Source of the DNA: Dactylorhiza incarnata
Taxonomy: Eukaryota > Streptophyta > Magnoliopsida > Asparagales > Orchidaceae
Direction: 5' to 3'
Length of the DNA: 64,000 nt
Assembly: GCA_033032865.1 (NCBI GenBank)
Contig: JAWHQI010000049.1
Coordinates: forward strand, 4,588,001-4,652,000
Position numbers and translations under genes: made by a program. Below the pieces are notes generated by a model, which was not told the DNA's origin, ran no database searches, and worked only from the letters and a program-made list of their open reading frames with translations. Below, in pieces: positions 905-49,780 of this stretch; the stretch's first letter is position 1; each line of letters begins with the position of its first letter.

Positions 905-1403
905 CACCCTGAGTCACGCCCGTGACTACAAGTCACGCCCGTGACCTAGGGCATGTAATCTGCGTTCGACGAATGGCAAGCTCCGTTCAACGAAAGTCGA
1001 ACTGCGTTCGACGAACGCCCTCTACCCCTGCGTTCGACGAACGATCTCTGCCCTGCGTTCGACGAACGTTGAGCTGCGTTCGACGAAAGCTCTGCCCTGC
1101 GTTCGACGAAAGCTCTCTGCCCTGCGATCGACGAAACCTGAGCTGCGTTCGACGAACTCTCAATCCAAGCGTCCGACGAATCCACCACCAGCGCCAAAGT
1201 CACGCCCATGCTACCGCCCACTGTCACGTCCATGACACTGCAGGTCACGCCCATGAGAAGCCAAGTTTGACCGCAGACCTTCCAGAAGACGGCGGATGCG
1301 ACCCCTAAAGCACGCGCAAATGTCACGCCCTAAGTCACGGCCGTGACATCCAAATCACGCCCGTGACCTAGGGCGTGTAAAACTGAAATTTTTCCTATAA
1401 ATA
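905..1403 (+). promoter_or_regulatory. Two-motif palindrome array followed by a TATA box
   Basis: Two motif families are packed into about 480 bp. The first is GTCACGCCCGTGAC, inverted arms around CC, intact or nearly so near 913, 931, 1333 and 1361, with degenerate copies around 1197-1255. The second is CTGCGTTCGACGAACG and variants, repeated about ten times between 959 and 1185. A good TATA box (TATAAATA, 1396-1403) follows directly. The layout is that of an LTR U3 promoter of a plant retrotransposon. The open reading frames on both strands here are by-products of the repeat and are not called as genes. Confidence 0.7.
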
Positions 1404-6540: not shown

Positions 6541-7443
6541 TCTTTGATGAGACCAGCCTACTATATATGGGCTGGTCCAATTCTTCTGTTATGACCGGTG
6601 ATGAACATAAAATGCAAGATATGTCTATCCAAGACATACCCAACACAAGCAAGATCTATTCAGATGCTTCTATTCCTGAAGATGAAGATCAGCAAGCTGC
6701 TAAAGAGCCTGTTACTCCAAAAGATGAACTGCAGATTGTGGACAGATTGCTTGCAGCAAACAGACATCTAAGGGATCTTCTAAGGAACCAGATTATTGGA
6801 GATGAAATCCAAGGAGTGATCACCATAAGTAGGGATCACAATGAAGCTCTATTCTTGAGCTTCTATCACGGATGGAGCCCAAGAAATTTGAGGAAGCAAA
6901 TGAAGACACCTTCTGGATTCAATCAATGCAAGAAGAGCTGCTACAATTCAAGAGGTGCAAGGTATGGAAGTTGGTGACAAAGCCTCAAGGACAAAATATC
7001 ATTGGCACCAAATGGATCTGCAGAAATAAGCTTGATGAGAATGACATCATCATCAAGCACAAGGCTATACTGGGGCCAAGGGATACATGCAAGAAGAATG
7101 TATTGACTTTGATCAAACTTTTGCCTAGTTGCAAGTTTAGAAGCAATAAGGCCATTCCTTGCCAATGCTGCCCACAAGGGGTTCAAAGTCTACTAGATGG
7201 ATGTCAAGTCAGCTTTTCTAAATGGCAATCTAAAGGAAGAAGTATATGTGGAGCAGCCCTCAGGTTTTGTTCATCCAACCCTTTCCTCTCATGTCTATTT
7301 ACTTAGGAAAGCATTATATGGTCTAAAGCAAGCCCCTAGGGCTTGGTATGAGACCTTGTCTAGCTTTCTCATCAAGAAAAAATTCTTGAGGGGAAAGATA
7401 GATAGTACATTGTTTCTTAGGGAAACAAAGGGCAAATGTCTCC
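6541..7443 (+). pseudogene. SIRE-P reverse transcriptase, first half
   Basis: After an acidic linker (6541-6860) come typical copia RT blocks: IIGTKWICRNKLDEND near 7000, a frameshift near 7075-7195, then [20 protein letters not shown] from 7197 and [17 protein letters not shown] near 7310. The sequence stops dead at 7443, where a solo LTR begins, and resumes at 9022. The catalytic YVDD lies beyond the insertion. Confidence 0.8.
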
Positions 7444-9016
7444 TGATGAGTCCCAATTATATACACATATATGGACTCATCTAGGCCGTGTTTCTAGTCT
7501 TTCCGCTGCACTTTAGCCTTGTTTTAGCTCATAATTATCATTCCATGCTAGGTGCACTTCTTGGCCTATTTTGGTGTATTTTTATGTTTATTCTCCTATG
7601 TTAGCCTTATCGTACTGTTGAGTGCCACTTTCAGTGGCCTGATTAGCATTTCTGTAGGAACAGGAGTCGTGCAGGTATTCCCGGTACAATTCTATACAGG
7701 AACACTGTGCACGATCACTGGTTCTATTGCGCACGACCACTGGTCGTGCGCCGCTGATCGTGCGCACTCAACCCCAAAAATCTGAGTTCTGTCTTCCTTA
7801 TCGCATGACCACTTACGATAGCGCGCACGACCACTGGTCGTGCGCCACTAATCGTGCGAACATTGTATTTTATAATTTTCTTACCTTGCAGGCTCCGTCC
7901 AGGCAGGCGCACGATCACAGGATGCCAGCGCGCACGACCACTGGTCGTGCGCCAATGATCGTGCGCACTGTTTATTCCAGCGCCTATAAATTGTCCTGCT
8001 CGCGATTTAGGTCGGGATCGATGATTCCAGTCCACCCCGCTCCGCCGTTTTCGCCCCTTCCACAGGTTTTTCGCCCCTCCATCGCCGCCCACCATATGGA
8101 GGTGCTCCGGGCTTGTTCTTCACGCCAATCTTGAGCCGGAGCTTCCTCTCGGCCTCCTCCTTCATCCTAGCGCTCCAAAGGAAGATCTAGCCGCCATCTC
8201 CATCAAGCAAGGGGAAGTTTGCAACCTCTACCAGATCGTGACACGAAGAAGACGGGCTCATTGGAGAGTAGTGACAGCTCTCTCTACCCCGGACGTAGTT
8301 GCGGACCGAGCTTGGACGCGGATTGACAACCCGGCGATTCCAACCATGAATCTACAACGAGCCTTCGGATTCGGTCGATTTCTTGCCTTGTTCTTCTCTT
8401 ATTGATGTGTATATGTTTTAGATCTCCTTATTATGATGAAGTTGCACTTAAACTAGTTTGTATTTCTATATATTTCATGTCTATGTGAAATGTTTGTTGT
8501 TTGAGTTGTTTGAGGTGCGCCCCATTCCATCCTCCATCCCGCCGTCACGTTCGTCGCCGCACTAGCAATTGCTAGTGGCGTGCTTGTCGAAGAGGTGCTT
8601 ACGACCCTCATTCCCTTAGCCTACTCATCCATCCGCCTACCGAAGCGTGGCATCGCGGCCCGTATTCCATTCGCCTAACGAAGCAGCGCGCTCAAGGCCT
8701 GCATAGTTCGATTCCATTTGCCTACTCGTCCATCCGCCCTTGCGAAGCAGCGCGCTCAAGGCCTGCCTAGTCTCCATCCCGCCAAGCGAAGCACTGCATA
8801 GCGGCATTGCATAGGAGTAGTTGTAGTTGTTTTCTTTTATTTTCCAAAAGCCAAATCACCCCGTTTCCGCACTCCACCTATCACTGGACTTCGATCTCAA
8901 GTCCTTCCTCGAAACCTAACTCCACCTTACTGTGTTCCTCAAGAGACCGACACTCGGGGATTTTCCCCATTATTATTACTTGCGCGACCGGTGCACTTGC
9001 CAAAAATATCGCATCA
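7444..9016 (+). mobile_element. Solo LTR of an Athila-2-like family
   Basis: It runs from TGATGAGTCCCAATT to ATCGCATCA. The termini TGATG/CATCA are inverted, and the flanks TCTCC (7439-7443) and ACTCC (9017-9021) fit a 5-bp target duplication with one change. The first 60 bp are nearly identical to the complement of the Athila-2 LTRs (ends at 38032 and 45479). It carries the GCGCACGACCA palindrome array and a TATA box (7985). No internal sequence, primer-binding site or purine tract is attached, so it is a solo LTR left by LTR-LTR recombination. It interrupts the SIRE-P reverse transcriptase. Confidence 0.88.
7705..7992 (+). promoter_or_regulatory. Palindrome array and TATA box of the solo LTR
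   Basis: Three copies of a 23-bp near-perfect palindrome occur at 7729-7751, 7823-7845 and 7930-7952. Each is the half-site GCGCACGACCA and its inverted copy around one central base. Half-sites of type GATCGTGCGCAC lie between them. Spacing is 94-107 bp. The TATA box TATAAATT (7985-7992) follows about 33 bp after the last copy. The same motif fills the U3 of both Athila elements in this window. Confidence 0.8.
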
Positions 9017-10138: not shown

Positions 10139-10382
10139 GGTCAGCTGAGTCAGCTGAGAAAGTCTCAGCTGATCCACTGAGATGGATAAAACTTTCTCAT
10201 CAGTTGACAATACCTTGTCCCAGCGGGTTGTCACCCCGTCTCAGCAGTTCCTTTGAGACGGGCTAATAAAATTAAATATTGCCTTAACTGAATATTCTGT
10301 AATATAAAATCAAGAAAGTAGATAAGTCAAATCAACATATGTCATTTGGGCAAACCTAATCCTAAATTAAATCTATATAAAC
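10139..10382 (+). promoter_or_regulatory. Putative internal promoter of the SIRE-P third ORF
   Basis: An array of GCTGAG/CTCAGC motifs occupies 10139-10263. The best unit (10162-10183) begins GTCTCAGC and ends CTGAGAT. It differs at only two positions from a 22-bp palindromic unit in this element's own 3' LTR (49394-49415). A TATA box (TATATAAAC, 10374-10382) lies 111 bp downstream of the array and about 100 bp before the ATG of the third ORF (10481). The region is not a colinear copy of the LTR; only the motif is shared. Promoter activity is inferred. Confidence 0.55.
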
Positions 10383-10480
10383 AGAGTCAAGTTGATTAAT
10401 TAAATTACAAACTCTTTCAACCTAGCCGATGAGACAAACCCTCTTCCCTCCCGTATCAGCGACTTATTCCTTCTGAAGAA

Positions 10481-12069
10481 ATGGTGCCAAAGATGGCAAA
10501 GGATCTCCATGAAGGATATGAGATCATTAGGAATGGATTCCAGCATGCCCATGTTGAGATTCAATAAGTGATTGAAATTCTAATTGATCAAGGTTTAGAA
10601 TATCTTCTAGCAGAGCCGACTGTAATTCTCAAAACTGAAGTCCTGGAATTATTCAACAATGCCAAATTGTCATCCTCCAATTCTTCAGTTAAGTCTAAGA
10701 TAGGAAGGATAAAGATATAGATTTCTCCAAGAAAGATGGAGAAGGCCCTTCAACTGTCATCTTGCAATCAAGATGAGGAAGAAGAAGTATCTGAGAAAGT
10801 AAAGGACAAGGCCCTAAAGTGGTGTGAATATGGTGATGCCAGGACTGGCTCACTAAAGAGGAAATTCATCAATCAGAGAGGCAAGCTTCTGTCTGATATA
10901 GTTGGGAAGGTACTGCTGTGCAAGCCTAGATCTCATGAATCAATCTCCAAGCATATTTTTGATCTGATGTCAAGAGTGATCTTGAAGTATAATACATCCT
11001 GGGCTATTGTCATATTCCAGAGAATTAAAGAATGTCTGCAGGCCCACAACCTTGGTAGAATTCTTTCCTTATACCTTCTGAACACATACCCAAAAGAGCT
11101 TGATAAGTCTAAAGGTTCCAACCTCCATTACTTGAAAAGAATGGACATTAAAACTTTGGACAGGTTCTCAAGGGTGCTCCCAATAAGCCAGCCCTCTGAG
11201 TTGAAGGAAAAGAAGAAGACAGTAACAAAGGGGCTGAGGAAAGCCAGAATGATCTGCTCTGATTCTGGGTCAGAGACAGAAGAAAATGCCCCAACTGAGG
11301 AAAATCACATTCCTGCCAGCAGTCCACCCAAGGCTGATCAAGGAGGAGACAATGACACAGAAGGTCATGAAGGTCATGCTGCTACTAAAGAGCATGAGAA
11401 GGATAAAGCTGATACTGGTGATAAAGATCATGAGAAAAGTGAGGAGACTGCTCATAATGTAGCAAAGACAGATGAACAAGGAGGAGATTAGACTGTAAGT
11501 GATGTTCCCAAGTCTCTTACTGCTGATGAAACTGTGCTAAAAGTGCCCTCAGATTTAGAAGATCAAGAAGAGGGATGTATATACACTACTACTGAATACA
11601 AGGTAAGATTGATCTAATTATATCAAATCTAGAGACAAGATTTAATCTAATCCCTCATGAAGTACCAGATTACTCGAGAGATGATCTTGAGGATCATGAT
11701 GCCCCATATGAGGGGGAGCAGTAGAAGAAATGCTCTGATAAGGAAGATAAGGGTGCTCCTAATGATGGGGAGCAAGTTGTCTCAACTGACAAAGGAAGTA
11801 AGGAGGTTGTAGAAGATGATGCTGACAAGAAGGATGATGCAGCCGAGGGGGAGCATGACAAGCATGAAATGGATACATTGAGAGGGGTGCCTGAAGTCCA
11901 TCCCTCCACATCAGTTGTATCACATGAACAACTCCTGAGTTCAATCATTGAATGTCATATGACTTTAATTAAGGATTATATTGATAGATCTGTCTTGACA
12001 ATGAAGAAAGATGTCATGACTGAGATTCAAGAAATTATGGAAGAAATTTCCTTCCTTAATAAGCAGATG
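10481..12069 (+). pseudogene. SIRE-P third ORF, first part (former env-like ORF)
   Basis: It starts at an ATG about 100 bp after the TATA box. Stops interrupt at about 10564 and 10719, and the longest open part is 10736-11491 (251 codons). The block GKLLSDIVGKVL..KPRSHESISKH, with a downstream LGRIL, aligns with the third ORF of SIRE-M (LFDIIGKVL..GHDYINRH, then FGRII), so the two are homologous. Downstream come a basic stretch (KEKKKTVTKGLRKAR), a Ser/Glu-rich acidic region and His/Asp/Lys-rich low complexity, then more coding in other frames to 12069. SIRE-M interrupts it there, and the frame continues at 47795. Function unknown; no transmembrane segment was noticed. Confidence 0.6.
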
Positions 12070-12337
12070 TGAAAGTGGAGGTTAGATCTTAAGTTACTCT
12101 AGAGGGGGGTGAATAGAGTATTAAAACTTTTTATTAGTTTTTAAAGCAGAATTAAAATACTGATGTATATATATGTGTAATGCAGAGTGTGTTATATAAT
12201 GAATAAAGAAAATAGCACACAACACAGAAACAATACAGAAAATCACAAGCACAGGGGAAACAATAAAAATATAGTAGTTCCCCAATAAATCTGGTTACGT
12301 CTACTCTTCTACCACAGCTGGTAGGAATCCACTAGGA

Positions 12338-12475
12338 GTTTTTGATAAGGTGTCCACACACCACAGAGCTTTTGATAAGGTGCTCAAGGCCAGGGGTTTT
12401 TTGATAAGGTGTCCACACACCAATAAGCTTTTGATAAAGTGCTTAAAAACCACACAAGGATTTTTTGATAAGGTG
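12338..12475 (-). repeat. Tandem CACCTTATCAAAA motif in SIRE-M LTR
   Basis: On the plus strand TTTTGATAAGGTG or a one-base variant recurs five times at roughly 30-bp spacing. The spacers alternate between CCACACACC-type and CTCAAGGCC-type sequence. The block lies between the TATA-like box and the 3' end of the LTR, so it would be transcribed at both RNA ends. The 5' LTR carries the same block (about 46500-46635). Confidence 0.8.
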
Positions 12476-13231
12476 TCTTGCCACCACTGTGTAAACTTTT
12501 GAAGGGAGAATTAACCCTGTACAAGATAAGGTAAAGAGGTTTAGAGTGTTCTTCTCTGTCAATATTTCTGAGAGAAGACAAAAGGTGTTGAGGATGAAAG
12601 CTCCCCCTATCTGTTTGAAGTTGTTGACAACTTGAGGTTGAAGCTTTCTCTAAAACAGAAATCTTTTGTAGCAGAATAATCTGGAAGAAGTAAATCTTCA
12701 GATTGTTGTTGCTCTTTGGAAGATTTGAACTTGCAGCAGATCTGAGAGAATGAATGTTGTTCTCAGAGAGATGAAGATGCTGCCTTTAGAAAGAAGAAGA
12801 CTGAAGGTATATGTTCTCTGTATGTGTTTTCTTCTTCTTCTCCTTTTTCTAAATCCTTCTGTATACTTGTTGTTCTAAAGAACTATATTTCTTAGAGATA
12901 AAAAAAATGATTGTGAAAGATCTGTCTCTATAAAGGAGTACGACTATTTTTTTATATACTTCCTTCTTTGATAGCTTTTATTATTTGAAATTCAAATCAT
13001 CTGTCTTTAAGGAATATATTATTCTGGCTTAAATCCTTCTTTGAACTATAACAGCTACCAAAACGATTTTGGCAGGTCCTTTTTGATTCCTTTGACGTGA
13101 AAAATGTCGTAGCATTAAATGTCAACGACTATTTTTGTCTTGGAATAGAAGGAATAAAAGAATATAATAAATGAATAAGATATCCTTACTAAACTGACTG
13201 AATACGTCCAAAAATACTTGAATAGATCCGT

Positions 13232-13490
13232 TAAGGTCGTCGATCTGCATTCAGAGTGTTGACAAAATAACTGATATAAATAATCTGGACTTGTATTTGT
13301 CGAACTGAGCTTTAATATAGAATTTGTCGAGCTCTGGCTGGAATTCGTCGAACGCTGCTTGTCATTTGTCGAACGCTGCTCAGATAATGTCGAGCGCTGG
13401 AACTGGCTATAATTCTTCAGTCTGCTGAGAAGAATTCGTCGAACGAAGCTAGACATTCGTCGAACACCACTTGCCATTTGTCGAATGATG
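13232..13490 (-). promoter_or_regulatory. TCGTCGAACG motif array in SIRE-M 3' LTR U3
   Basis: About eight to nine copies with consensus ATTYGTCGAACGCTG are seen on the plus strand, for example near 13296, 13324, 13344, 13365, 13434, 13455 and 13475. They fall within about 250 bp at the U3 end of the LTR. The copy at 13365 (ATTTGTCGAACGCTG) also occurs exactly, on the other strand, in the internal array at about 16791. The 5' LTR carries the matching array at 47455-47650. Confidence 0.8.
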
Positions 13491-13628
13491 GGAACTTAAA
13501 TATTCCTTAAGTTCTAGCTAATCAATCATCCTAAAGAGTTGACCCTTAGGCTATACAATGGGGTCAACTTGATCCTTAGTTAAAACATAGTGATCCTAGC
13601 CCAAAACAGTAATAGGGTTGTTCCAACA

Positions 13629-13643
13629 ATCTCCCCCTATTTG
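13629..13643 (-). other. SIRE-M polypurine tract
   Basis: On the minus strand the sequence reads AAATAGGGGGAGAT directly before the TGTTGG start of the 3' LTR. This is the usual place and composition for the plus-strand primer in reverse transcription. SIRE-P has the nearly identical AAATAGGGGGAGAT before its own 3' LTR (49108-49121), which supports a shared lineage. Confidence 0.85.
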
Positions 13644-13826
13644 GGTTAGGATACTATTTGACAATTAATCAAATAAATACAATAGAAAACATAAACAATA
13701 GAGCATAAAAGATATATATCTGACAGAATGAAAATTCATTTCAGCAGATTGAATAAAGATAGTGCTCTGACTTCATTATAATCAAAATGTTTAACAATAA
13801 CAAAAATAAATAAGTCTGAACCTCTT

Positions 13827-15686
13827 TTACTTCTTTGCTGATGGAGGTTTGAAGATGATTATCCTGTTTGGATCTTCAGACTTCTTCTTGCTTATGTAGA
13901 GATCTTGAGCACCAATAACAGTTTGAGATTTGACATGAGGGACAAAAGCTCCTGGGTGCTTTTCAAGATATTCTTCAGCATTGAATAACTCTTTGGAATT
14001 GTACTTGTCAAGCTCTTTCCTTCTGTATTCAGACATGGTAGAAATGTTTGTGAAATCTTTACCTTCTGATTTTGCTTTGTTAATTTGGGCATAAGCAATT
14101 GTTTCTTTGAGTCTTGCCATTTGAGATAATCTTTCCTCTTCAGGATCTGGAAGATAGGAAACACATTCTGAAATATCAACTTGATCTTGAAGATCACTTT
14201 GAGAATTTTTGATCTTGTGAAAAGATCCATCAGAAATATGAAGCATGTATTCTGAAGATATTTGAGGTGAAATAATGACTGGACTTTCTTGTGAAGCAAC
14301 TACTGATTTCTTAGAAGGAGGATTACTGGCTGATCCTGATACTTGAGATCCACTGGAACTGCCAGATTTCCTTGAATGCTGAGAGCTGGGCTTCTGGGAG
14401 AAGGATGATGGTGCTGCTGAGCCTGCTGATGGAGGAGGAGGAGGAGGAGGAAGATGGTTATATTTGACAGGTTTGTCAGAATAATAACCAGTTTTCTTGA
14501 ATTTCTTTCTCCTCTTCATTTCATTTCTGGAGAACTTCATCCAGTGAGGGGTATCCTTGTCAAGAGTGATATTATGAAGGATGTAGTAGAGAATATTACT
14601 ATCTGGGTTAGGAGGCTTGGGGACAGCCTTTGACTTTGCTTTTCTTTTCTTTCTTTTCCTTGATAATGTGTCATCAGAATCACTATCATTGTCTTCTTCA
14701 TTAGAATCAGAAGAGGGAATTGGATTATCATATAAGTTATTAACCAATTTAAGAGCTTTGATTCTTTGCTCTTCAGCTTCATAAGCTTCATCCTCTGCTT
14801 TCCAGATTTCATCAAAGTCTGGAATTGGTGATTCATCAAAGACAAAAGTTGGGAATTCAAAATTATTAATAATTTCTTCTGAAATTTTAACTGATTCATC
14901 TGCAAGACTTTGAACTGGAACTGGAACAAGAGCTGGAACTGCTCTTTGAACTGCAAAACTACTAATGATCTTTTTCAACAAAACTTTGTCAATTGGAGTA
15001 GTATAAGGAACAATTGCTCTAGAATAATTATGATATTTTGGCAGATTAGAGTAAATAGGACTGAACTTAGATAGCAAAGAGATAATATCTAGGGAGGGAT
15101 GTATATAGATATTATTAATTTCTTCTATAGCTAGTATTCCAGATGCTTCAACCAAATCAAACATTTCTAAATCAGAAATTTTAACTGATTCTTCAACTAA
15201 AATTGTATCCTCTGAAGCTGGAATAAAAATTGTATCGGTATCAAAAATTGTAGCTATATGAGAAACTATATCCTCTGAAATTTGAGCTTCTGGAACTTCT
15301 TCATGAGGCATCTCCCCCTGCCTAGCTTCAGGGAGACCTAAATCTAGGCCCCTAGAAGAAGGGACAGAGATAGAGGAAGGAATTGAAGATATAGTAGAAG
15401 ATAGTTTAAAAATTCCTTGAAGAATTGGAGCAATTTTTGCATCCAATGTGGAGTCAAGAGTAGAAAGAATGTTATAGACTGGAGCAAGTTTTGCATCCAG
15501 GATTTGATCAATCTTGGGAAGAATATAGTCAAGAATTTGACCTGCAACAGTGTGGAAATGTAGAAATAGCATTAGAAGTGGATGGAATGGAAGTTGGTAC
15601 AAAAATGTTTGCAACATTTGCATGTTGTTGAGGGATGTCAGAATGAATAGGGCAAGAGTGATGGATGGGTGAATGATGGTCATCAT
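13827..15686 (-). pseudogene. SIRE-M third ORF, C-terminal 619-codon part
   Basis: This is an open frame of 619 codons after pol. Visible features are heptad-like repeats (ILDAKLAP.., LDAKIAP.., residues about 60-90), an acidic Ser/Asp run (about 328-339) followed directly by a basic cluster SRKRKKRKAKSK (about 342-353) that looks like a nuclear localisation signal, and a Pro run encoded by (GGA)n near 14430. A Ser/Gly-rich segment and a charged C-terminus follow. The hydrophobic first 45 residues look like a wrong-frame reading: another frame over 15540-15700 continues the preceding ORF piece. No convincing signal peptide or membrane anchor supports the old name envelope-like. Function unknown. 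Confidence 0.6.
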
Positions 15687-15719
15687 GCATGGGAGATGGA
15701 GGTGGAGAAGTGTGAGGAG

Positions 15720-16610
15720 TTAGAATGGTTGATGAGGATGGAATGTCATCATTGCTGGGGAAATATTTTGAGGTGGAGATGGGAGAGGAGGAGAAGAAAC
15801 AATAGGAGGAGGAGAAGAAGCTTCTAGAAGGGGTGAGGGAATGACTGAATCAGTCCTTGTGCCTTCAGAAGTTTTCTTCTTTGTAATTGCTCCCCTGTTC
15901 TTCTTGGTAAACACCCTATCCCATTTAGCAAAGAGAGCTGAAGTCAGCTTCTTGCTGGCATTAATGGTCACCTTGGGAGAGACCATATGGTCTTGGTGTC
16001 TTTCCTGCAAAACAATTCCTATAATCCTTCCAAAACAAACATTTTCCTTTGAAATCTTCTTCTTAATCAATCCAAACAAGATTGATCCCCAGTTCATTTT
16101 CTTCTTTTCCATTATGGCCACCATCAACATAAATTTGTGCCTATTAATATAATCATGTCCTGTTGTTTTCCCTTACAACACTTTGCCAATTATATCAAAA
16201 AGAAACTTATATTCCACAGATAAGTTCTTCTTAAGTAGGTGATTAGGGTTTCCAGTGGAATGACCCATTTTAATCAGTGCTTCATTAGTTTCAACAGAGC
16301 TGAGCTCTATTTCATCATCACCATTAACAAAACCAAAAACCTCAGTTAAAATGGTAGGGGTAAGAGAGACCTGATGTCCTGAGATGTTTCCTGTCAGACG
16401 TTCATCTTCCTGCTTAGCCGTAAAACACCATTACTTGATTTCTGCTGTGTGCAGCTTTATTCTCATCCTCATTAACTTCTTTAACTGCTGCTCTTCAAAC
16501 AGTTGAAGAATATCCTTGAAGATTTGGTCAGATTGAGTGAATGATTCCAGGTCAATGTCAAACCCAGCATCGAACTTCATTGAGTAGAGCACGGCTTGAG
16601 AAATCGCCAT
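15720..16610 (-). pseudogene. SIRE-M third ORF, N-terminal part
   Basis: It begins at the ATG at 16610 (ATGGCGATTTCTCAAGCC), about 100 bp after a TATA box and right after a possible splice acceptor TTTCTTGCAG. Open pieces are 16431-16610 and 15720-16130, broken by stops and frameshifts. The middle (LFDIIGKVL..GHDYINRH, then FGRIIGIVL) aligns with the third ORF of SIRE-P. This resembles the conserved core of a group of proteins often annotated as putative plant transposon protein; that assignment is from memory and uncertain. Confidence 0.6.
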
Positions 16611-16697
16611 GTGTACCTGCAAGAAAGAAAGATCAAGTGCAGAGGGGAACTAGAGGGAAACGATTTCTGTAGGCGCAATCTATTATGTATAGAAAAA

Positions 16698-16935
16698 AGA
16701 TATTATATAGATCGGAGAAAGGGGTGCATTTGAGGAGCGGGGTTTGGCAAAAAAAAAGAAGTCAAAAAGACTTTAGGTCTCCGTCAGACAGCGTTCGACA
16801 AATAAAAATATCCTTTTCGTCGACCACCGTTCGACAAATGAAATTTTCTTTATCGATTCTGAAGTTAACAGGTTTTGTCGACCGCCGTTCGACAAATGAT
16901 TAGATTCGTCGTCCTCCGTTCGATGAATTGAGGGG
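16698..16935 (-). promoter_or_regulatory. Putative internal promoter of the SIRE-M third ORF
   Basis: On the minus strand four sites of type ATTTGTCGAACG or ATTCATCGAACG, several paired with an inverted GTCGAC half, lie between 16935 and 16791. The last is an exact 15-bp match (ATTTGTCGAACGCTG) to this element's LTR array. A TATA box (TATATAAT on the minus strand, 16702-16709) follows about 82 bp downstream, and the third-ORF ATG (16610) about 100 bp further. The layout matches SIRE-P 10139-10481 although the motif is different. Promoter function is inferred. Confidence 0.6.
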
Positions 16936-17048
16936 ATAAATAGAAATTTTAAGTTTTAACAAATTGAATCTCCATCTATCATTCCTAGTCGATTTATAAA
17001 GAAGATGTGCTTCTTTTCATCCAAGAGCTTGGTGAAAATGTCAGCTCT

Positions 17049-18751
17049 TTATAAATCAGTAGAAATGAACTGTAGGTAAATTTTATTTTTATCCACATTA
17101 TCCCTAAGGAAGTGGTGCCTAATCTCTATGTGTTTAGTCCTACTATGGAGAACTGGATTTTGTGCTATAGATATTGCACTTGTATTGTCACAAAATATAG
17201 TTGATTTATTTAAGTTGATACCATAGTCTAGAAGTTGATTTTGTATCCACAACATCTGTGAGCAGCAACTGCCAACATCCATATATTCAGCTTCAGTTGT
17301 TAATGTAGACACAAATGTCTGCTTTTTACAAAACAAGACACAAGCATGTCACCAAGAAAATGACAAGTTCCTGATGTGCTTTTCCTGTCTACTCTGCATC
17401 CAGCATAATCTGAATATGAGAATCCAGTTAATTCAAATTTAGATGCTGTTGGATACCAAAGTCCTAGATTAGGGCAACCCTTTATATATCTCAAAATCCT
17501 TTTTAATAAAATTAAGTGAGATTCTTTGGGGTTAAATTGAAATCTAGCACAAATACAGGTAGCAAACATTATGTCAAGTCTACTAGCTGTTAAATAAAGT
17601 AGTGAACCAACAATTGCTCTGTATACTTTTGAATCAACAGGTTTCCCTGATTCATTATTAACAACAACAGCATTTGAGGGCATGGGTGTTTTCATGGTGG
17701 AAGAATCAGACATACCAAATCTTCTCACTAATTCTTTAGCATACTTAGATTGGGATATGAAGATTCCATTTTGAGTTTGCTTTACTTGAAGACCAAGGAA
17801 GTATGATAGCTCACCCATACTACTCATTTCAAATCTTGATTGCATTAGATTGGAAAATCTTTTGCACAAATTTGAATAAGTAGAGCCAAAGATAATGTCA
17901 TCTACATATATTTGAACTAGTAGAGTTTGATTTTTATGTATTTTGAAAAATAAGGTTTTATCTACTATGCCTCTACATAAATTATTTTCCAGAAGAAAAC
18001 TAGCTAAAGTTTCATACCATGCTCTAGGAGCTTGTTTGAGACCATAGAGAGCTTTCTTAAGCTTAAATACAAAAGAGGGTTTAGTTGGAGAGATGAAACC
18101 TGGTGGTTGTTCCACATAAACTTCTTCTTTGATTTCTCCATTTAGCAATGCACTCTTCACATCCATTTGATAAACTTTGAATCTTTTGTATGCAGCAAAT
18201 GCAAGGAAGATCCTGATTGCCTCTAACCTTGCAACTGGTGCAAATGTCTGATCATAGTCTATCCCTTCTTCCTGTGAGTATCCTTGAGCTACTAGCCTAG
18301 CTTTGTTTCTCACAATATTTTCCTCTGCATCAAGCTTGTTCTTGTAGACCCATTTGGTTCCAATCACTGGATAATTCTTTGGTCTTGGAACCAAATCCCA
18401 AACTTTGTTCCTTTCAAATTGGTTGAGCTCCTCCTGCATTGCAAGAATCCACTTTGGATCTTGTTCTGCATCTTTTATGGTTTGAGGTTCAACTTGTGAT
18501 AGGAAACAAGTATGCATCTGATTTTGGTGTAGTTGATGCCTTGTTTGAACACCTACTAAAATATCTCCAATCACTTGTGAAATTGGATGATCTCTAACTG
18601 TGATGGGGTCAACAGTTAGAGTTGGTTCAGCAATTGTATCCACTTGGGGAATTTGTTCAGCTGCTATATCTTGTGAAGAATGATCTGTTGTTGTCTGTTC
18701 TGAACTTTCAGCAAAAGATGGAAGATTTTCTTCTTCACTCTCTTCATCATT
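17049..18751 (-). pseudogene. SIRE-M reverse transcriptase and RNase H
   Basis: The main frame 17300-18643 (447 codons) contains a full copia [58 protein letters not shown] and the catalytic YVDD in [12 protein letters not shown] frameshift near 17330 moves the RNase H end into 17049-17336 ([34 protein letters not shown]). The frame upstream of 18643 is continuous with the integrase ORF except for one UAG at 18752-18754, a likely C-to-T change. RT copies the element RNA inside the particle. Confidence 0.85.
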
Positions 18752-20051
18752 CTACTTTTCAAGATTTAGAATTCCTTCTTTATGTAGAGCTAATTGATCT
18801 AGCTGCTCACATAATATAGGTACCTGCAGATTTTCTATGGTAGAAGGAATCTTCTCCTTATAAAACATGTTAGTTTCATCAAAAGAGGCATGCATAGATT
18901 CTTCTATTTTAAGAGTGGATTTATTATAAATCCTATATGCTTTACTGATTTGAGAATAACCTAAGAAAATTCCTTCATCTGATTTTGGTTCAAATTTCCT
19001 AAGGTATTTCTTATCATTATTGTGAATATAACATCTACAGCCAAATGTTCTAAAATAGTTAACTTTAGGTTTCTTCCCTTTAAGTAATTCATAAGGAGTC
19101 TTTCCATTAAGTTTGTGTATCAAACTTCTATTCAGAACATAATTTGATGTACTAACAGCCTCTGCCCTAAAGGATATGGACAAATTAGCATCTGCAAGCA
19201 ATGCTCTTGCTGATTCAATTAGAGTTCTATTTTTCCTTTCAACTACCCCATATTGTTGAGGAGTTCTAGGAGCTAAGAAACAATGCCTGATACCTTCCAT
19301 CTCACAGAATTCTTGCATAAGAAGAGACTCAAACTCAGTACCATGATCACTTCTGATCAATGCAACTACAATAGAGTACTCAATCTGTATGCTCTTAAGA
19401 AAGTCTGTAAGACCTTTAAAGTTATCTGACTTTTCTCTCAAAAAGAACACCCAAGTGAATCTAGAGAAGTCATCTACAATATCTAGAGCGTAAGACTTCC
19501 CCCCTAAACTCTTTGTTGTTATAGGTCCAAAAAGTTCCATATGTAGCAAATATAAGATTCTAGGTGAATCACTTTTAGATAATGATTTAAAACTATTTTT
19601 AGTTTGCTTACCTAGTTGACATGCCAAACATAGACCTTCTTTCTTGTATGAACCTGAGGGTAATCCTCTAACAATATTGTCCTTAGATAGTTTAGCAATG
19701 GTCCTAAGGTTTACTTGTCCTAATCTTTTGTGCCAAAGCTCACTAGATTTGCTTCCATCACTAAATAAACAAACTTCTGAAGTAGATGAATTGAAATTCA
19801 CTAAATATATATTACCTTGCCTAATACCTGATAAAACAGTAATATTATCAGTAGATTTAATAAGGCAATTCAATTTATTAAAAGTTACCTGATACCCTTC
19901 ATCACATAATTGACTTATGCTGATGAGGTTGTGCTTTAGTCCTTTGACATAAGCTACCTCTTTGAAGGTGACTTCTCCAACCTTGACTTTTCCATAGCCT
20001 TTGGTCTGTCCACAGTTGGAGTCTCCAAATACAACCTTTGGTCTAAGCTTT
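18752..20051 (-). pseudogene. SIRE-M integrase, main part
   Basis: It covers the GAG-pre-integrase, HHCC and core regions. Two key positions are altered. The second His of the zinc site reads Gln (WHKRLGQVNLRT), and the first catalytic acidic residue reads Glu (LHMELFGP where relatives have LHMDLFGP). The second Asp (RSDHGTEF) and the Glu (VERKNRTL) are present. Athila-1 interrupts at 20052 with the duplication GCTTT, and the protein continues upstream at 35578. An integrase with this core is unlikely to act. Confidence 0.8.
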
Positions 20052-21543
20052 TGACGCGCTATTTCCACACCGCTAATTAGCGGGCACGAAATGCGGTACG
20101 ACGGCAGTGCACCGGTCATTATCAAGTAATAAAAGTAGGGAGTAGCTCCCCGAATATCGTTTTCAAAGGACCGCAAGTTGGGTAGTACGATTTGCTTGTT
20201 AGGAGATTAATTATGAGGGTTTCTAAGTTTAACAAAAACAGGGGAGTTTTGATTGGTTTTATAGAACGGGAATGAGAAAACTAAACAAACTATGCGGGTC
20301 GCAATCACCACGTCGCTAGGTGGATGGATTTAGTGCAGGTCGCGATGCCGTAGCTTCGCTTAGCGGATGGCCGGTGAGCAAATGGATGAGGTGAGTGTAA
20401 ATGCGAGAGTTGAGGGTCGAAGGCACCTCTTCGCTATCGCTTCCAGCTTTTGCTAGAGCGAGTGCTAGAACATGTGGGTGTAAGTGGAGCGGGGGAGGAG
20501 CGCATCACAACACAGCATCAAGTAAGGAACAAGATCATAAACAAACTCCCATTCATAGACAAATAGAGGTTCACTTAGTTCATTACAACAATGAAGAGTA
20601 CATATCACAAAAAAGGAGAAGGGGTAGAAGGAACCACGAGATGAGAAGCCTCGCCGTGGATCTTGGACGGAATGGGTGGTCTTCACGCCTCCTCCGAGCT
20701 CAGTCCTTGGTTGCTTCCGGGGTTTAGAGGCCGTCACTGCCTCCAACCGTTGCCCGTCTTCTTCTCAGAGCTGGGTCACTTCTGCTTCGCCCAATGGAGA
20801 TGTCCTCCTCATGGAATGCTGGCCGTAGATGCGGAGAATGCTTCCGGGATCCTAGATGGACCTTAGGATCAATGGATGAAGCCTTCCCAAAGGGAGGAAT
20901 GGAAGGGAGAACCTTAGAGAGGTGAAACGGCGGACTGGCGCGCAGAAATCGCGCCCACAAACAGTGCGGAATCCCTAATTTCACGGAGCAGCGGTTTAAA
21001 TAAGGAGCAGAATAAATACTGTGCACGGTCAGTGGCGCACGACCAATGGTCGTGCGCGAAGGAATGCCTGTGATCGTGCGCAGTCAACCTGTAGCAAAGA
21101 AAAAGATGGAAAACAACGCACGGTCAGGGGCGCACGACCAGTGATCGTGCGCGAAGAAATGGCTGTGATCGTGCGGCAATGCTCTGTCTGGGACGGGAAT
21201 TAACGCACGACCAATGGTCGTGCGCCTGATCGTGCGCGAAGGAATGCGCACGATCAGAGGCTTTTTAGGCCAAAAATTGCCCCGCACCATCCCGAACGTG
21301 CACGCGATCCCAGGACCTGCAGGAAAAATACATATGACCCCGATCCGTGCACACCACCAGATCCATAACACAGGTATACAGTAATATATCAGAAAAACAT
21401 GCCACAAAAGGGGGAAGGATTGCACAAAAGGCGCATATACGCCATGCTATCAATATAAGCATATATGAACAGCAATTGAAGTGCAATGATACTAAAACAA
21501 ACCCAAATGAGGCTGAAAATCACTGTATAAACCAGACTCATCA
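20052..21543 (-). mobile_element. Athila-1 3' LTR
   Basis: 1492 bp, closely similar to the 5' LTR at 34102-35572. U3 on the minus strand holds the GCGCACGACCA palindrome array (about 21015-21265). A TATTTAAA box (minus, about 20996-21003) follows at the expected side. The purine tract lies directly to the right (21544). A few small indels separate the two LTRs, for example about 15 bp around 21313 that are missing near 35350. Confidence 0.88.
21015..21265 (-). promoter_or_regulatory. GCGCACGACCA palindrome array, Athila-1 3' LTR
   Basis: GCGCACGACCA joined to its inverted copy around one base occurs near 21037, and degenerate versions near 21130 and 21203. Half-sites such as GTGATCGTGCGC lie between them. 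A TATA-like TATTTAAA on the minus strand lies just beyond (about 21000). The 5' LTR copy is at about 35070-35305. The motif equals that of Athila-2 and of the solo LTR, although LTR sequence outside it differs a good deal. Confidence 0.75.
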
Positions 21544-25617: not shown

Positions 25618-26744
25618 TGTTGGAGTTGCCATTGTGATCTAGAAGTGGTCAAACATGTAATCTCACTGCCAACGCGATATGAGCCTGCAGGGTCGCACAT
25701 AAGAGCATGTGGAGAAGTTGGAAGATTGACTGTGTTGGTAAAGGTTACCAATCACCATATAGAATGGGGAAGTCCAGCAAATGTTGCTGTCTGAATTCGT
25801 CGGATATGATTCGTCGGAATTCGTCGGGTTTACACGGATTGGATTCGTCGGATTCGTCGGGATTCGTCGGGTCATTCCGTGGAAACTCGACGAACTGTGA
25901 CAGAGATCCTTCACTCGACAAAGTGTTGTCGTCTGTCTGGATTCGTCGGATTCGTCGGGTCATTCCGTGGAAACTCGACGAACTGTGACAGAGATCCTTC
26001 ACTCGACAAAGTGTTGTCGTCTGTCTGGATTCGTCGGATTCGTCGGGTCATTCCGTGGAAACTCGACGAACTGTGACAGAGATCCTTCACTCGACAAAGT
26101 GTTGTCGTCTGTCTGGATTCGTCGGATTCGTCGGGTCATTCCGTGGAAACTCGACGAATGATCTTCCGTGAAATTCCGACGAATTGTAACAGAAGCCCTT
26201 ATTCTGATGTGTGGTCTGCGGATAGCGATTCTTCTAGAAGCTGTTTATCCTTTGGGTATAAATAGGACTTCGCTTTAGGGTTCATGAGAACTTACAAAAG
26301 AGAAAGGCCGACGGAAGTGTTCCGCTCTCGCCCGAACCCTAGACGGAAGGAGTTCCGTCGCTCGTTCGCCTCCGCCGACCTCCTCTCCGTCGATTGTCGT
26401 CGGCATTGTTCTTCCTGAAGCGGATCTAGCAATTCGTGGAAGTGCAAGGTGCAGCCTTTCTTCCTTCCGAGTTGCGTGCGACGTGACTTGGCGTTCTCCC
26501 GGCTCGTGTGGACTTCTGTAGAGACGTAGACATAATTCTACGTGAGAACTCTTCTTGCCACCGACAGGAATCAACTCTTGGAGCATCTTGGTTGGATTTG
26601 ATCCAACTCCATTGAGGTAATTTTTACCTAGTATTTTATTAACTTCTTGATACAACATTCATGGCCGATCCAAGCACTTTTGGGTTGTTTCTGTTTATTT
26701 CCGCTGCGCCTACATCTGATGTATGGTTCTAGAAAAACCCAACA
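25618..26744 (+). mobile_element. 5' LTR of the young copia element
   Basis: U3 includes an 88-bp tandem repeat (separate entry), then TATAAATA (26254-26261) in GGGTATAAATAGGAC. R-U5 runs to CCCAACA at 26744, followed by the primer-binding site. It appears identical to the 3' LTR apart from single changes near 25683, 26399 and 26606. The minus-strand ORF of 127 codons inside it is present in both LTRs and is not regarded as a gene. Confidence 0.95.
25786..26180 (+). repeat. 88-bp tandem repeat with TTCGTCGG and CTCGACGAA sites in LTR U3
   Basis: GGGTCATTCCGTGG recurs at about 25870, 25958, 26046 and 26134, a period of 88 bp. Each unit holds GATTCGTCGGATTCGTCGG, ACTCGACGAACTG and CACTCGACAAAGTG. 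The array ends about 75 bp before the TATA box. The 3' LTR has the same four copies (about 32978, 33066, 33154, 33242). It is the only array here that is a true exact tandem repeat. Confidence 0.92.
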
Positions 26745-46233: not shown

Positions 46234-47789
46234 TGAAAGTGGAGGTAAAATCTTAAGTTACTCTAGAGGGGGTGAATAGAGTATTAAAACTTTTTATTAG
46301 TTTTTAAAGCGGATTTAAAATACTGATGTATATATATGTGTAATGTAGAGTGTGTTATATAATGAATAAAGAAAATAACACAACACAGAAACAATACAGA
46401 AAATCACAAGCACGGGGGACACAAGGAAATATAGTAGTTCCCCAATAAATCTGGGTACGTCTACTCTTCTACCACAGCTGGTAAGAATCCACTAGGAGTT
46501 TTTGATAAGGTGTCCACACACCACAGAGCTTTTGATAAGGTGCTCAAGGCCAGGGGTTTTTTGATAAGGTGTCCACACACCAATAAGCTTTTGATAAGGT
46601 GCTTAGAAACCACACAAGGATTTTTTGATAAGGTGTCTTGCCACCACTGTGTAAACTTTTGAAGGGAGAATTAACCCTGTACAAGATAAGGTAAAGAGGT
46701 TTAGAGTGTTCTTCTCTGTCAATATTTCTGAGAGAAGACAAAAGGTGTTGAGTTTGAAAGCTCCCCCTGTCTGTTTGAAGTTGTTGACATCTTGAGGATG
46801 AAGCTTTCTCTAAAACAGAAATCTTCTGTAGCAGATTAATCTAGAAGAAGTAAATCTTCAGATTGTTGTTGCTCTTTGGAAGATTTGAACTTGCAGCAGA
46901 TCTGAGAGAATGAATGTTGTTCTCAGAGAGATGAAGATGCTGCCTCTAGGAAGAAGAAGACTGAAGGTATATGTTCTCTGTATGTGTTTTCTTCTTCTTC
47001 TTCTCCTTTTTCTAAATCCTTCTGTATACTTGTTGTTCTAAAGAACTGTATTTCTGAGAGACCAAAAAAATGACTGTGAAAGATCTGTCTCTATAAAGGA
47101 GTACGACTGTTTTTTATGTACTTCCTTCTTTGATAGCTTTTATTATTTGAAATTCAAATCATCTGTCTTTAAGGAATATACTATTCTGGCTTAAATCCTT
47201 CTTGGAACTGTAACACGTACCGAAACGATTTTGGCAGGTCCTTTTTGATTCCTTTGACGTGAAAGATGTCGTAGCATTAAATGTCAACGGCTATTCTTGT
47301 ATTGGAATAGAAGGAATAAAAGAATATAATAAATGAATAAGATATCCTTATAAACTGACTGAATACGTCCAAAAATACTTGAATAGATCCGTTATGGTCG
47401 TCTATCTGCATTCAGAGTGTTGACAAAATAACTGATATAAATAATCTGGACTTGTATTTGTCGAACTGAGCTTTAATACAGAATTTGTCGAGCTCTTGCT
47501 GGAATTCGTCAAACGCTGCTTGCCATTTGTCTAACGCTGCTCAGAGAATGTCGAGCGCTGGAACTGGCTATAATTCTTCAGTCTGCTGAGAAGAATTAGT
47601 CGAACGAAGCTAGACATTCGTCGAACGCCACTCGCCATTTGTCGAATGCTGGGAACTTAAATATTCCTTAAGTTCGAGCTAATCAATCAGCCTAAAGACT
47701 TGACCCTTAAGCTATACAATGGGGTCAACTTGATCCTTAGTTAAAATATAGTGATCCTAGCCCAAAACAGTAATAGGGTTGTTCCAACA
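46234..47789 (-). mobile_element. SIRE-M 5' LTR
   Basis: 1556 bp and colinear with 12070-13628. It has the TCGTCGAAC array (47455-47650), the CACCTTATCAAAA tandem block (46500-46635) and a degraded TATA-like site near 47115 (the 3' LTR has TATATAAA there, this copy reads GTACATAAAAA). Scattered substitutions and indels show that SIRE-M is older than the copia element nested in it. Confidence 0.9.
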
Positions 47790-47794
47790 AGATG

Positions 47795-48709
47795 ACAAAG
47801 TGGTTTTACTTTGCAAAGAAATATGTAGTTGCTCAGAGGACTATTCTGAGATCAATGGACAAACAACTTCAATTATCTGAGCAAGACATATGATGTGTCA
47901 AGAATTTTGTTAGCAAGACTAATGATGTCATAAAGAAAGCCTCCAAGCACATTAAAGAATATGTATGGTTCACTACAACAACCATGATTTGTGAAGCAGA
48001 AAAGATGAAAGATGTGCTTAAGACAGACCTAGAAAATGCCTTCTAAACCCTCTCAGGATCTGTAGCAGCTGTTACACAAAGCTTACACCAAAAAATAAGA
48101 GAAGAGGCCTGAAAGGGGGAGGAGATAAATGTAGAGAACAATTCTCTAATGGCCCTCAAGGTTCGACAGGGAACAATAATAGTATTGAACCTTCCTCTGC
48201 TGGACAATATGAGAAAGGAAGACTTTGATTTTGAGACTCAAGCCAAGGTTGCTCAAAATCAACAACTTGCAGCAAGGAGGAAGAGGGAAGGTGTCTTGCT
48301 AGTAGAAGAGTTCATTTCTAAGCAAAGAATAGAGCAGGGCAATGACCCTGATTATAAGTATTGGAGTGAGGACTCCAAAAGCATTATTCTGAATACTTGG
48401 CTGTGTCATGGCCAAGTCTGCTAGGTCATTGACGGAATGTAACTTGCATAAGTGTGGATAAGGCACCTTGAGAGAAACACAAAAAGGGAAAGAATCTTCA
48501 AAGGTAATTTAGTGAGGAAGCATAACCCAAGGAGGATGCCTTCAAGATATATTCCAAAGCCCTATCTGTACTTCAAAAGGCAAGAAAACAAGAGGAAGCT
48601 AGATGAGATAAAAGCTTCTGTTGGAGAAAAGGAGGCTACTGCTAAAGGAAAGGAGGCTACTGCAGAAGATGCTGAATGCTCATTTTCATCAAAGAAAAGA
48701 AAAACTTAA
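47795..48709 (+). pseudogene. SIRE-P third ORF, C-terminal part
   Basis: It continues in frame from 12069 across the AGATG duplication. Stops at about 47891, 48043 and 48110 break the frame. Longer open pieces are 48149-48424 and 48452-48709. The end is strongly basic (HLERNTKRERIFKGNLVRKH, then PYLYFKRQENKRKLDE) with an EKEATAKGKEATAED repeat, and it terminates SSKKRKT. These basic clusters could act in nuclear import or nucleic-acid binding. No enzyme motif is seen. Confidence 0.55.
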
Positions 48710-49121
48710 ACTTATGTATTAATTTTGTTTTATTAAATATTATGAAGGAAATGTAAAATGAACAATGCATCAACATTTTATCCTTAATGAAATTGATAAC
48801 TCTGTTGAATTAATAGTTTATGTTATAGGGCAATTTTAGTGAAGTTGAATGTTATTCAATACTAATGCTTTAGATATTCTGTGGTACCTATACACATACA
48901 TAGTTAACAATGTTATTGTTTTATTAAAACAATGTTGTTGTTATGTTGTCATGAATTTTGGATAATCTATCATGACATTTTATGTAATGCCAAACTACTG
49001 TTAACATTTCTTTGTTATGATATCATGAATGTTATGCAACACATTGTCATGATAATTTCTTTTTGTGGTTATGTATCTTAGCATTGGTGTATGCTCTGCC
49101 TTCTTCAAATAGGGGGAGATT
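48710..49121 (+). other. SIRE-P 3' non-coding region and polypurine tract
   Basis: AT-rich, with no ORF. Short inverted words (ATCATGAC, GTCATGA, ATGTTGTT) recur between 48890 and 49060. AAATAGGGGGAGAT (49108-49121) is the polypurine tract and is nearly identical to that of SIRE-M. The 3' LTR starts at 49122. Confidence 0.75.
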
Positions 49122-49780
49122 GTTGGGAATATTGCCCTCAATGTTCCTTTGATTTGGAAAGGCATAACTCACAATGCTATGTACATACTGTATTTGATAA
49201 ACCCTATTTTGCATCATGACTATGCAGAGTTAAGTTATTCTAAGCATTGTGATAAAGTTAGTGGTTTACTGTCAAAACCGCAAAGACGAGCTCACTGTCT
49301 CAACTCAACCTCTGAGACGAGGCCAGGAGCCGCTGAGAAGGGGTCTGCCTCAGCTGATCTGCATTTAGACAGAATTCGCTGAAAAGACTGTCTGTCTCAG
49401 CGGATCCGCTGAGATTAAGACATCTCAACCGCTGAGACGAAGACAGCTCAACCGCTGAGCCTAAAAGCTGTCTCAGCCCAACCGCTGAGACAAATTCAAA
49501 TCTGAAGACAACATTGGCGGGATCTACTTTTGGCGCAAGTGGGCATAAAGCAAGATAAAGAATTCTATGCTCCTCCATACTTTGTCAGGGATGGTTAGTG
49601 TCAATAAGTGTAACATTAAGAGTGGTTTGGTCAAGGGTAGACACCAATAAGAATAAGTGCCTTGAAAAGGGAGCTTTGGGGTTCAGCCCATCAATGCTCC
49701 TAGTACCGTTGCGAGCTCCTCATAGGGTAGTCCTCGAGAAGTCCATGGATAACCAAAAACTGTGGGAATAAATTGTTATG
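49122..49780 (+). mobile_element. SIRE-P 3' LTR (right end uncertain)
   Basis: It starts TGTTGGGAATATTG after the purine tract. U3 contains the CTCAGC/GCTGAG array (about 49290-49500). No TATA box is obvious, and no terminal CA could be fixed because gypsy LTR sequence follows from about 49600-49780. LTR-A/B at 3096-4858 is not its partner, since it carries a different motif family. The 5' LTR must lie outside the window or be lost. Confidence 0.6.
49290..49500 (+). promoter_or_regulatory. CTCAGC/GCTGAG palindrome array in SIRE-P LTR
   Basis: At least eight sites occur in about 210 bp. The best is a perfect 20-bp palindrome at 49395-49414, TCTCAGCGGA followed by its inverted copy. Others read CTCAACCGCTGAGAC. 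The same words form the array upstream of this element's third ORF (10139-10263). Confidence 0.75.

What the first reader, a model, noticed from the sequence alone, without database searches (positions are those of the whole stretch)
10139..16935. Two SIRE-type elements each place their own LTR motif a second time upstream of the third ORF
In SIRE-P the internal array (10139-10263) and LTR array (49290-49500) share the CTCAGC/GCTGAG motif, including a 22-bp unit with only two differences. In SIRE-M the internal array (16791-16935) and LTR arrays (13232-13490, 47455-47650) share TCGTCGAAC, including an exact 15-bp match. The motifs are unrelated between elements, but the layout is the same: array, 82-111 bp, TATA box, about 100 bp, ATG of a homologous third ORF. 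Motif turnover has therefore happened in step at two distant sites of each element. That is expected if one protein must recognise both sites. A self-encoded factor from the third ORF is a simple candidate, comparable with VANC proteins of VANDAL transposons, which bind short motif arrays of their own element and oppose silencing.
Basis: partly seen in the sequence, partly recalled or inferred. Interest (0 to 1): 0.88.

Follow-up and report, generated by a model that had tools for sequence, protein, structure and literature searches.

The report
Sirevirus repeat motif at two promoters
Two plant retrotransposons each carry the same short repeated DNA motif in front of their main promoter and again in front of a probable second promoter for their third gene; this layout was described for this transposon group in 2010, and the idea that the third gene's own protein reads the motif is possible but not supported here.

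Summary
Both elements are Sireviruses. In each, the pol-ORF3 spacer array shares words with that element's own LTR array beyond shuffles and not with the other element's (in a stricter test P falls short). TATA box and ATG follow at similar distances; parts of the two ORF3s are homologous; both ORF3 copies are broken. The layout is not new: Bousios et al. 2010 (PMC2829016) found "RM boxes" in 13 of 21 Sireviruses, in the LTR and, in 9 of 9 RM-bearing elements with an envelope-like gene, also upstream of it (0 of 4 without), with CpG islands and a suggested internal promoter. The M motif is not private: an array outside SIRE-M (960-1160, unclassified) scores higher in a scan with M LTR words than the M spacer does. 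Families X, Y and Z, with no third ORF recognised, carry arrays in their LTRs too. One factor at two promoters is likely; a host factor fits better than an ORF3-encoded one, which is not excluded. A possibly newer by-product: both Sireviruses are almost CpG-free in coding sequence (o/e 0.01-0.08, four neighbours 0.62-0.63), and in SIRE-M most remaining CpGs sit in the two array-to-promoter stretches.

The parts
10139..10263 (+). SIRE-P internal array (GCTGAG/CTCAGC units) between pol and ORF3; 22-bp unit 10162-10183
   Evidence: top 150-bp bin outside the P LTR for 7- and 8-mers taken from the P LTR array (0 of 2512 other bins reach it)
10373..10384 (+). TATA-box-like CTATATAAACAG of the presumed internal promoter of SIRE-P
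10481..12069 (+). SIRE-P third ORF (env-like), first part; broken by stop codons and by the SIRE-M insertion
47795..48710 (+). SIRE-P third ORF, remainder after the SIRE-M insertion; broken
49111..49120 (+). SIRE-P terminal polypurine tract AGGGGGAG and AT of the attachment site
49121..49745 (+). SIRE-P 3' LTR, apparently truncated at its right end (scripts used 49116 as start)
   Evidence: right end judged by eye
49290..49500 (+). SIRE-P LTR array; 20-bp perfect palindrome TCTCAGCGGATCCGCTGAGA at 49395-49414
16780..16935 (-). SIRE-M internal array: TTTGTCGAAC units with inverted partners; CpG o/e 2.23
16699..16710 (-). TATA-box-like CTATATAATATC of the presumed internal promoter of SIRE-M
13827..16610 (-). 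SIRE-M third ORF (env-like), broken by internal stops and frame changes
13232..13490 (-). SIRE-M 3' LTR array (TTYGTCGAAC and variants, often 21 bp apart)
47391..47650 (-). SIRE-M 5' LTR array
12070..13628 (-). SIRE-M 3' LTR
46234..47789 (-). SIRE-M 5' LTR; ATTGG and primer binding site TATCAGAGG follow at 46233-46220
16399..16990 (-). CpG-retaining stretch of SIRE-M: array, TATA box, leader and ORF3 start; 26 of 30 CpGs of 7941 bp internal sequence (limits drawn after seeing the data)
960..1160 (+). E1: array with TTCGTCGAAC units in an unclassified LTR-like sequence outside SIRE-M; TATA at about 1396
25790..26180 (+). Array in the LTR of element Z (copia, gag-pol in one ORF, no third ORF seen), TTCGTCG / CTCGACGAA units, TATA at about 26257; its likeness to M is within shuffles

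Best explanation
Both elements are Sireviruses, and the arrays are the Sirevirus 'repeated motif' boxes: clustered, partly palindromic binding sites upstream of two promoters. One is the LTR promoter, which makes the genomic RNA. The other is an internal promoter (array, TATA box, leader, ATG), which makes a separate mRNA for the env-like third ORF. One sequence-specific factor per motif is assumed to bind both and switch the two transcripts on together, which is why the motif agrees within an element. The factor is most likely a host transcription factor; elements change factor by changing their arrays. Shown: motif agreement within an element, position, TATA boxes, CpG retention at these places, an M-like array outside SIRE-M, and arrays in elements without a recognised ORF3. 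Inferred: promoter activity, binding, and host origin of the factor.
For: Word sharing within each element beyond 300 shuffles and not across elements. With words from the P LTR array, 0 of 2512 other bins reach the P spacer. Array, TATA and ATG have similar spacing in both. In SIRE-M 26 of 30 internal CpGs lie in 7.5% of the length and 24 of 25 and 24 of 28 LTR CpGs in 35% of the LTR, limits chosen after seeing the data. With M LTR words, 5 of 2405 other bins (8-mers) and 6 of 2405 (7-mers) reach the M spacer; the bins listed with such counts all lie in E1, 926-1200. M_LTR-E1 shares 13 distinct 8-mers, above the maximum (11) of 200 shuffles. The single top word of the Z, X and Y LTRs was not found in their own internal parts. 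Published (PMC2829016): of 13 RM-bearing Sireviruses all 9 with ENV have linker copies and all 4 without have none; RM lie before a TATA box; four distant elements have nearly the same motif; PLACE comparison gave mainly stress-related factor sites.
Against: No transcription start, binding or expression data. Two Sireviruses only; no relatives could be fetched. The P pair is not above its null in the stricter test (7, null maximum 8) nor at 10-mers (2, maximum 3). The M spacer itself is not above shuffles against E1 (8-mers 8, maximum 8; 6, maximum 10); it is the M LTR array that is. Z-M (9, maximum 16) and M_LTR-E2 (7, maximum 11) are within shuffles. E1 is unclassified, so that it belongs to an unrelated element is inferred. 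The SIRE-M 5' LTR has TACATAAA where the 3' LTR has TATATAAA, and no TATA box was found in the P LTR part present. Bousios et al. could not name a common factor for the RM, and 8 of their 21 Sireviruses had no RM.
Confidence: 0.68

Rival explanations
1. Self-encoded factor: the ORF3 protein binds its own element's arrays in the LTR and before its own gene, activating or de-silencing both, as VANC proteins do for VANDAL transposons.
For: Family-specific motif at two sites, one right before ORF3. [quoted passage not shown] ORF3 pieces show basic clusters (RKRKK, KRRKK in M; RRKR in P) and, apart from one hydrophobic stretch at the start of the M piece that may be out of frame (KD19 1.87), no strong membrane segment (highest 1.45). 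The MASiVEdb authors write that the gene may not be a true envelope (PMC3414828 passage).
Against: M LTR motif shared with the E1 array; arrays in LTRs of X, Y, Z without a recognised ORF3; ENV-less Sireviruses retain LTR motifs; no domain found in the four ORF3 pieces scanned; model of mean pLDDT 43. The same MASiVEdb passage names transmembrane and coiled-coil domains as the shared traits of ENV-like proteins.
Confidence: 0.12
2. The spacer array is a copy of LTR sequence moved in by recombination or template switching, without any shared factor.
For: Would give the same motif in both places within an element.
Against: Similarity stops at the unit: longest exact match 15 bp (M, opposite orientation) and 11 bp (P; 22 bp with two differences). 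Self-BLAST listed no block of 100 bp or more between spacer and LTR. Spacing and orientation differ. CpGs are kept in the M spacer array while lost in the body. An old copy followed by turnover is not excluded.
Confidence: 0.08
3. The arrays act at RNA level as hairpins, feeding or resisting small-RNA silencing, as discussed for maize Sirevirus palindromes (Bousios 2016, seen only as cited in PMC10760457).
For: The P array stretches folded far better than shuffles (z -5.1 and -6.8, 0 of 200 as good). In maize an excess of small RNAs mapped to palindrome clusters (PMC10760457 passage).
Against: The SIRE-M LTR stretch tested shows no excess folding (z -0.16, 78 of 200 as good) and its spacer array a modest one (z -2.5, 3 of 200), so hairpins are not the common property.
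Confidence: 0.08

Closest known systems
[quoted passage not shown]
   Same: Same genus, same two places, motif agrees within an element and mostly differs between elements, palindromic units, LTR cluster in the upper LTR, TATA box downstream, CpG islands at both places, internal-promoter proposal. One P LTR unit contains CGG-AT-CCG.
   Different: The M motif (TTYGTCGAAC) lacks the CGG-CCG core. An internal TATA box is seen here in both elements. The authors found the RM in no classic (non-Sirevirus) copia element they examined, whereas here an array with the M motif stands outside the two Sireviruses, in an unclassified sequence.
VANC/VANDAL anti-silencing system of Arabidopsis (Hosaka 2017 PMC5735166, passages; Sasaki 2023 PMC10398659, abstract)
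   Same: Short motif arrays in non-coding parts of the element, element-specific motif, rapid change.
   Different: VANDALs are DNA transposons (recalled) and binding was shown by ChIP-seq and gel shift. Here no binding protein is known, ORF3 has no recognised domain, and the M motif is also found outside SIRE-M.
Maize Sirevirus LTR palindromes CACCGGAC..GTCCGGTG as small-RNA hot spots (Bousios 2016 as cited in PMC10760457)
   Same: Palindrome clusters in the Sirevirus LTR regulatory region; the motif is also found in another transposon class (Helitron).
   Different: The M LTR array stretch tested does not fold better than shuffles.

Membership tests
Sirevirus genus (features of PMC2829016) | Copia-type pol with integrase before reverse transcriptase (order recalled) | tested here: met
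   SIRE-M: rve and SH3_retrovirus in 18755-20206, RVT_2 in 17303-18751; five P pieces 47-64% identical to M in their best match
Sirevirus genus (features of PMC2829016) | Terminal PPT AGGGGGAG followed by AT/TG at the 3' LTR | tested here: met
   AGGGGGAG-AT-TGTTGG in both P and M
Sirevirus genus (features of PMC2829016) | Several PPT octamers in the linker (3-5 in the published table) | tested here: inconclusive
   P: 11711, 11846, 48114 plus terminal 49111 (4). M: 15312 plus terminal 13631 (2, fewer than published)
Sirevirus genus (features of PMC2829016) | 5' LTR/PBS junction CA-ATTGG-TATCAGAGC | tested here: met
   M: CA-ATTGG-TATCAGAGG, 15 of 16. The P 5' end is not in the window
Sirevirus genus (features of PMC2829016) | Inverted repeat around the PPT and polyC-rich integrase signal | not tested
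   not examined for P or M
Sirevirus RM boxes | Motif clustered in the upper half of the LTR and, with an ENV-like ORF present, upstream of it | tested here: met
   position in the LTR by coordinates (P LTR incomplete)
Sirevirus RM boxes | Palindromic unit with CGG-CCG core (12 of 13 published) | tested here: inconclusive
   P: perfect 20-bp palindrome with CGG-AT-CCG at 49395-49414, other units incomplete. M: dyad TTCG-T-CGAA without that core
Sirevirus RM boxes | CpG island at both clusters | tested here: inconclusive
   M arrays o/e 1.3-2.2; P LTR array 0.63 and P spacer array 0.37; coding sequence 0.01-0.08. CpG-island criteria themselves were not applied
VANC-type self-encoded anti-silencer | Element protein binds the array motif in a sequence-specific way | not testable with these tools
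   no binding data; ORF3 pieces without Pfam match, model unusable
VANC-type self-encoded anti-silencer | Motif highly enriched in its own family and rare in other elements | tested here: inconclusive
   M: not met in this window, the E1 array carries the motif. P: no other bin reaches the spacer count, though P_LTR-E2 equals its null maximum (7). No genome-wide count was possible

The most novel reading that the evidence does not exclude
The Sirevirus third ORF is not an envelope but a nuclear, sequence-specific activator or anti-silencer that reads its own element's array at the LTR and at its own internal promoter. Together they keep two CpG-bearing promoters open in an element that has otherwise purged CpG, making Sireviruses a retrotransposon counterpart of VANDAL/VANC; an element sharing the motif (E1) would be a free rider.
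Probability: 0.1. Interest if true: 0.85.

Novelty: new member of a known kind. Interest (0 to 1): 0.36.

Why it matters
It ties an unexplained feature of an abundant plant retrotransposon group (matched motif boxes at LTR and env-like gene) to an internal TATA box and to CpG retention in an otherwise almost CpG-free element. That makes the question of what the 'envelope' gene does testable: find what binds the boxes. The CpG pattern may also bear on the reported drop of CG but not CHG methylation over the middle of sunflower SIRE elements (PMC12844716 passages). If the factor were self-encoded, it would be a retrotransposon counterpart of VANC; two paper searches (listings, with passages of some papers) showed me no such case.

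Tried and rejected
Relatives: viral-contig scans with M reverse transcriptase, an M ORF3 piece and the Z polyprotein matched 2, 14 and 6 stretches, none confirmed as a relative. The junction pattern AGGGGGAGATTGTTGG hit 14 stretches, none matching M pol by tblastn at E 1; I take them as chance. Protein searches: 0 of 372 candidates for the P ORF3 piece and 0 of the 7994 scored candidates for the M ORF3 piece passed E 0.001. The genome search did not complete in any of five tries, so the source genome was not searched. Structure of the P ORF3 piece with the M piece aligned: mean pLDDT 43, not used for a fold search. Paper search for TTCGACGAA with retrotransposon: two papers, by title and abstract on other matters (listing only).

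Considered and dropped: an RNA hairpin as the common principle; recent copying from LTR to spacer; Z and E2 as cases of motif sharing with M (both within shuffles); CpG loss as decay after insertion: the M LTRs differ at 57 of 1554 sites, 6 of them CpG transitions, too little to empty the body, so the loss is older than the insertion (inference).
Full report

Both P and M are Sireviruses by features published in PMC2829016 (abstract, outline, passages and sections 6-9, 12 and 13 read). The terminal PPT and attachment site AGGGGGAG-AT-TG is present in both. M has the primer-binding junction at 15 of 16 bases, and extra PPT octamers lie in the linker (three in P, one in M).

The observation. Shared 9-mers between spacer and own LTR array exceed all 300 shuffles for both elements (M 20, maximum 9; P 8, maximum 6), while neither spacer resembles the other element's array beyond shuffles. 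A scan with words taken only from the LTR array puts the P spacer above all 2512 other bins; for M, 5 of 2405 bins (8-mers) or 6 of 2405 (7-mers) reach the spacer's count, and those shown in the top-ten list all lie in E1 at 926-1200. A harsher test with trimmed arrays keeps M (13, null maximum 12) but not P (7, null maximum 8). TATA boxes and ATGs stand at comparable distances, and internal ORF3 parts are homologous. Both ORF3s are broken.

Prior art. Bousios et al. 2010 report this arrangement: repeated motif boxes in the Sirevirus LTR and, in ENV-containing elements, additional boxes upstream of ENV. Table 3 lists 13 elements (of 21 studied) with their motifs; the 9 with ENV all have linker copies, the 4 without have none but keep 8-9 LTR copies; Osr10, Osr8, Vitis and Inga have nearly the same motif. 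The authors also describe CpG islands at both places, a TATA box after the LTR island, and support for an internal ENV promoter that they could not conclusively identify; they could not name a common binding factor. One P LTR unit is a perfect palindrome with their CGG-CCG core; the M motif lacks it. The finding is therefore a new pair of examples, with a clearer internal TATA box.

Who binds? The M LTR motif occurs in an array at 960-1160 (E1) followed by a TATA box at about 1396; M_LTR-E1 shares 13 8-mers (maximum of 200 shuffles 11). The M spacer against E1 (6, maximum 10), Z against M (9, maximum 16) and E2 near 63.2 kb against M (7, maximum 11) stay within shuffles, while E1-E2 (15, maximum 10) and X-Y (28, maximum 9) do not. 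The top words of the Z, X and Y LTR arrays were not found in their own internal parts (one word each). E1 is unclassified, so its independence from Sireviruses is inferred, for instance from its CpG content (0.79-1.35 in its flanks). These facts, and the ENV-less Sireviruses of the literature, speak against an ORF3-encoded factor being required, and for a host factor. They do not exclude ORF3. VANC proteins set the precedent for self-encoded binding with array evolution (PMC5735166 passages; PMC10398659 abstract). ORF3 pieces have basic clusters and little sign of membrane segments, no recognised domain and no usable model.

A by-product. Coding parts of P and M are nearly free of CpG (o/e 0.01-0.08; the M pol stretch of 3002 bp has one CpG), against 0.62-0.63 in Z, Y, X and G in the same window. 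CAG and CTG are not lost in the same way (71 CAG+CTG against 1 CG in M pol), although they are lowish in P pol (0.53 and 0.59 of a Markov expectation, against 0.56 and 0.92 in Z), so general loss of methylated cytosine is not a full explanation. In M, 26 of 30 internal CpGs lie in 16399-16990, from array through TATA to the ORF3 start, and 24 of 25 and 24 of 28 LTR CpGs in the matching LTR stretch (limits drawn after seeing the data, so the p-values there are indicative only). P shows the same tendency more weakly (7 of 19 in 6% of length). CpG retention reaches beyond the motif units into the presumed promoter, as expected of promoters kept unmethylated in active copies (inference). A sunflower study reports a strong CG-methylation drop over the middle of SIRE elements with CHG kept (PMC12844716 passages); missing CG sites could contribute. 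Two searches of open-licence papers (listings of 12 of 822 and 12 of 629 papers) showed no paper on CpG emptiness of Sirevirus bodies; this is no proof that none exists.

Verdict. Real and non-random, already described as a kind, with an interpretation that is half right: one factor at two sites is likely, self-encoding is not supported.

Noticed in passing
17049-20050, 13827-16398, 5300-7442, 10618-12069: Coding parts of both Sireviruses are almost CpG-free (o/e 0.01-0.08) while four other elements in the window have about 0.62; CAG/CTG is not depleted alike.
   Followed up: partly
960-1160 and 63200-63330: Two arrays of CTGCGTTCGACGAA-like units outside the Sireviruses share words with each other beyond shuffles (15, null maximum 10); E1 is followed by a TATA box at about 1396.
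   Followed up: partly
37500-37770, 44955-45220, 21030-21250, 35085-35300, 7729-7966: LTRs of X (two LTRs and a solo copy) and Y carry the same GCGCACGA array; self-BLAST lists only about 110 bp of similarity between X and Y LTRs.
   Followed up: partly
3097-4650: LTR-like sequence W, preceded by AAGGGGGAG, with 17 copies of AGACCGC.
   Followed up: no
25850-26158 and 32958-33266: Z LTRs hold 3.5 copies of an 88-bp unit at 99% matches.
   Followed up: no
41268-43756: Inside element X a dense block of direct and inverted copies, 137 to 836 bp, at 95-98% identity.
   Followed up: no
61829-62287: 18/54-bp tandem repeat GGGGAGCTCGCC... open in several frames.
   Followed up: no
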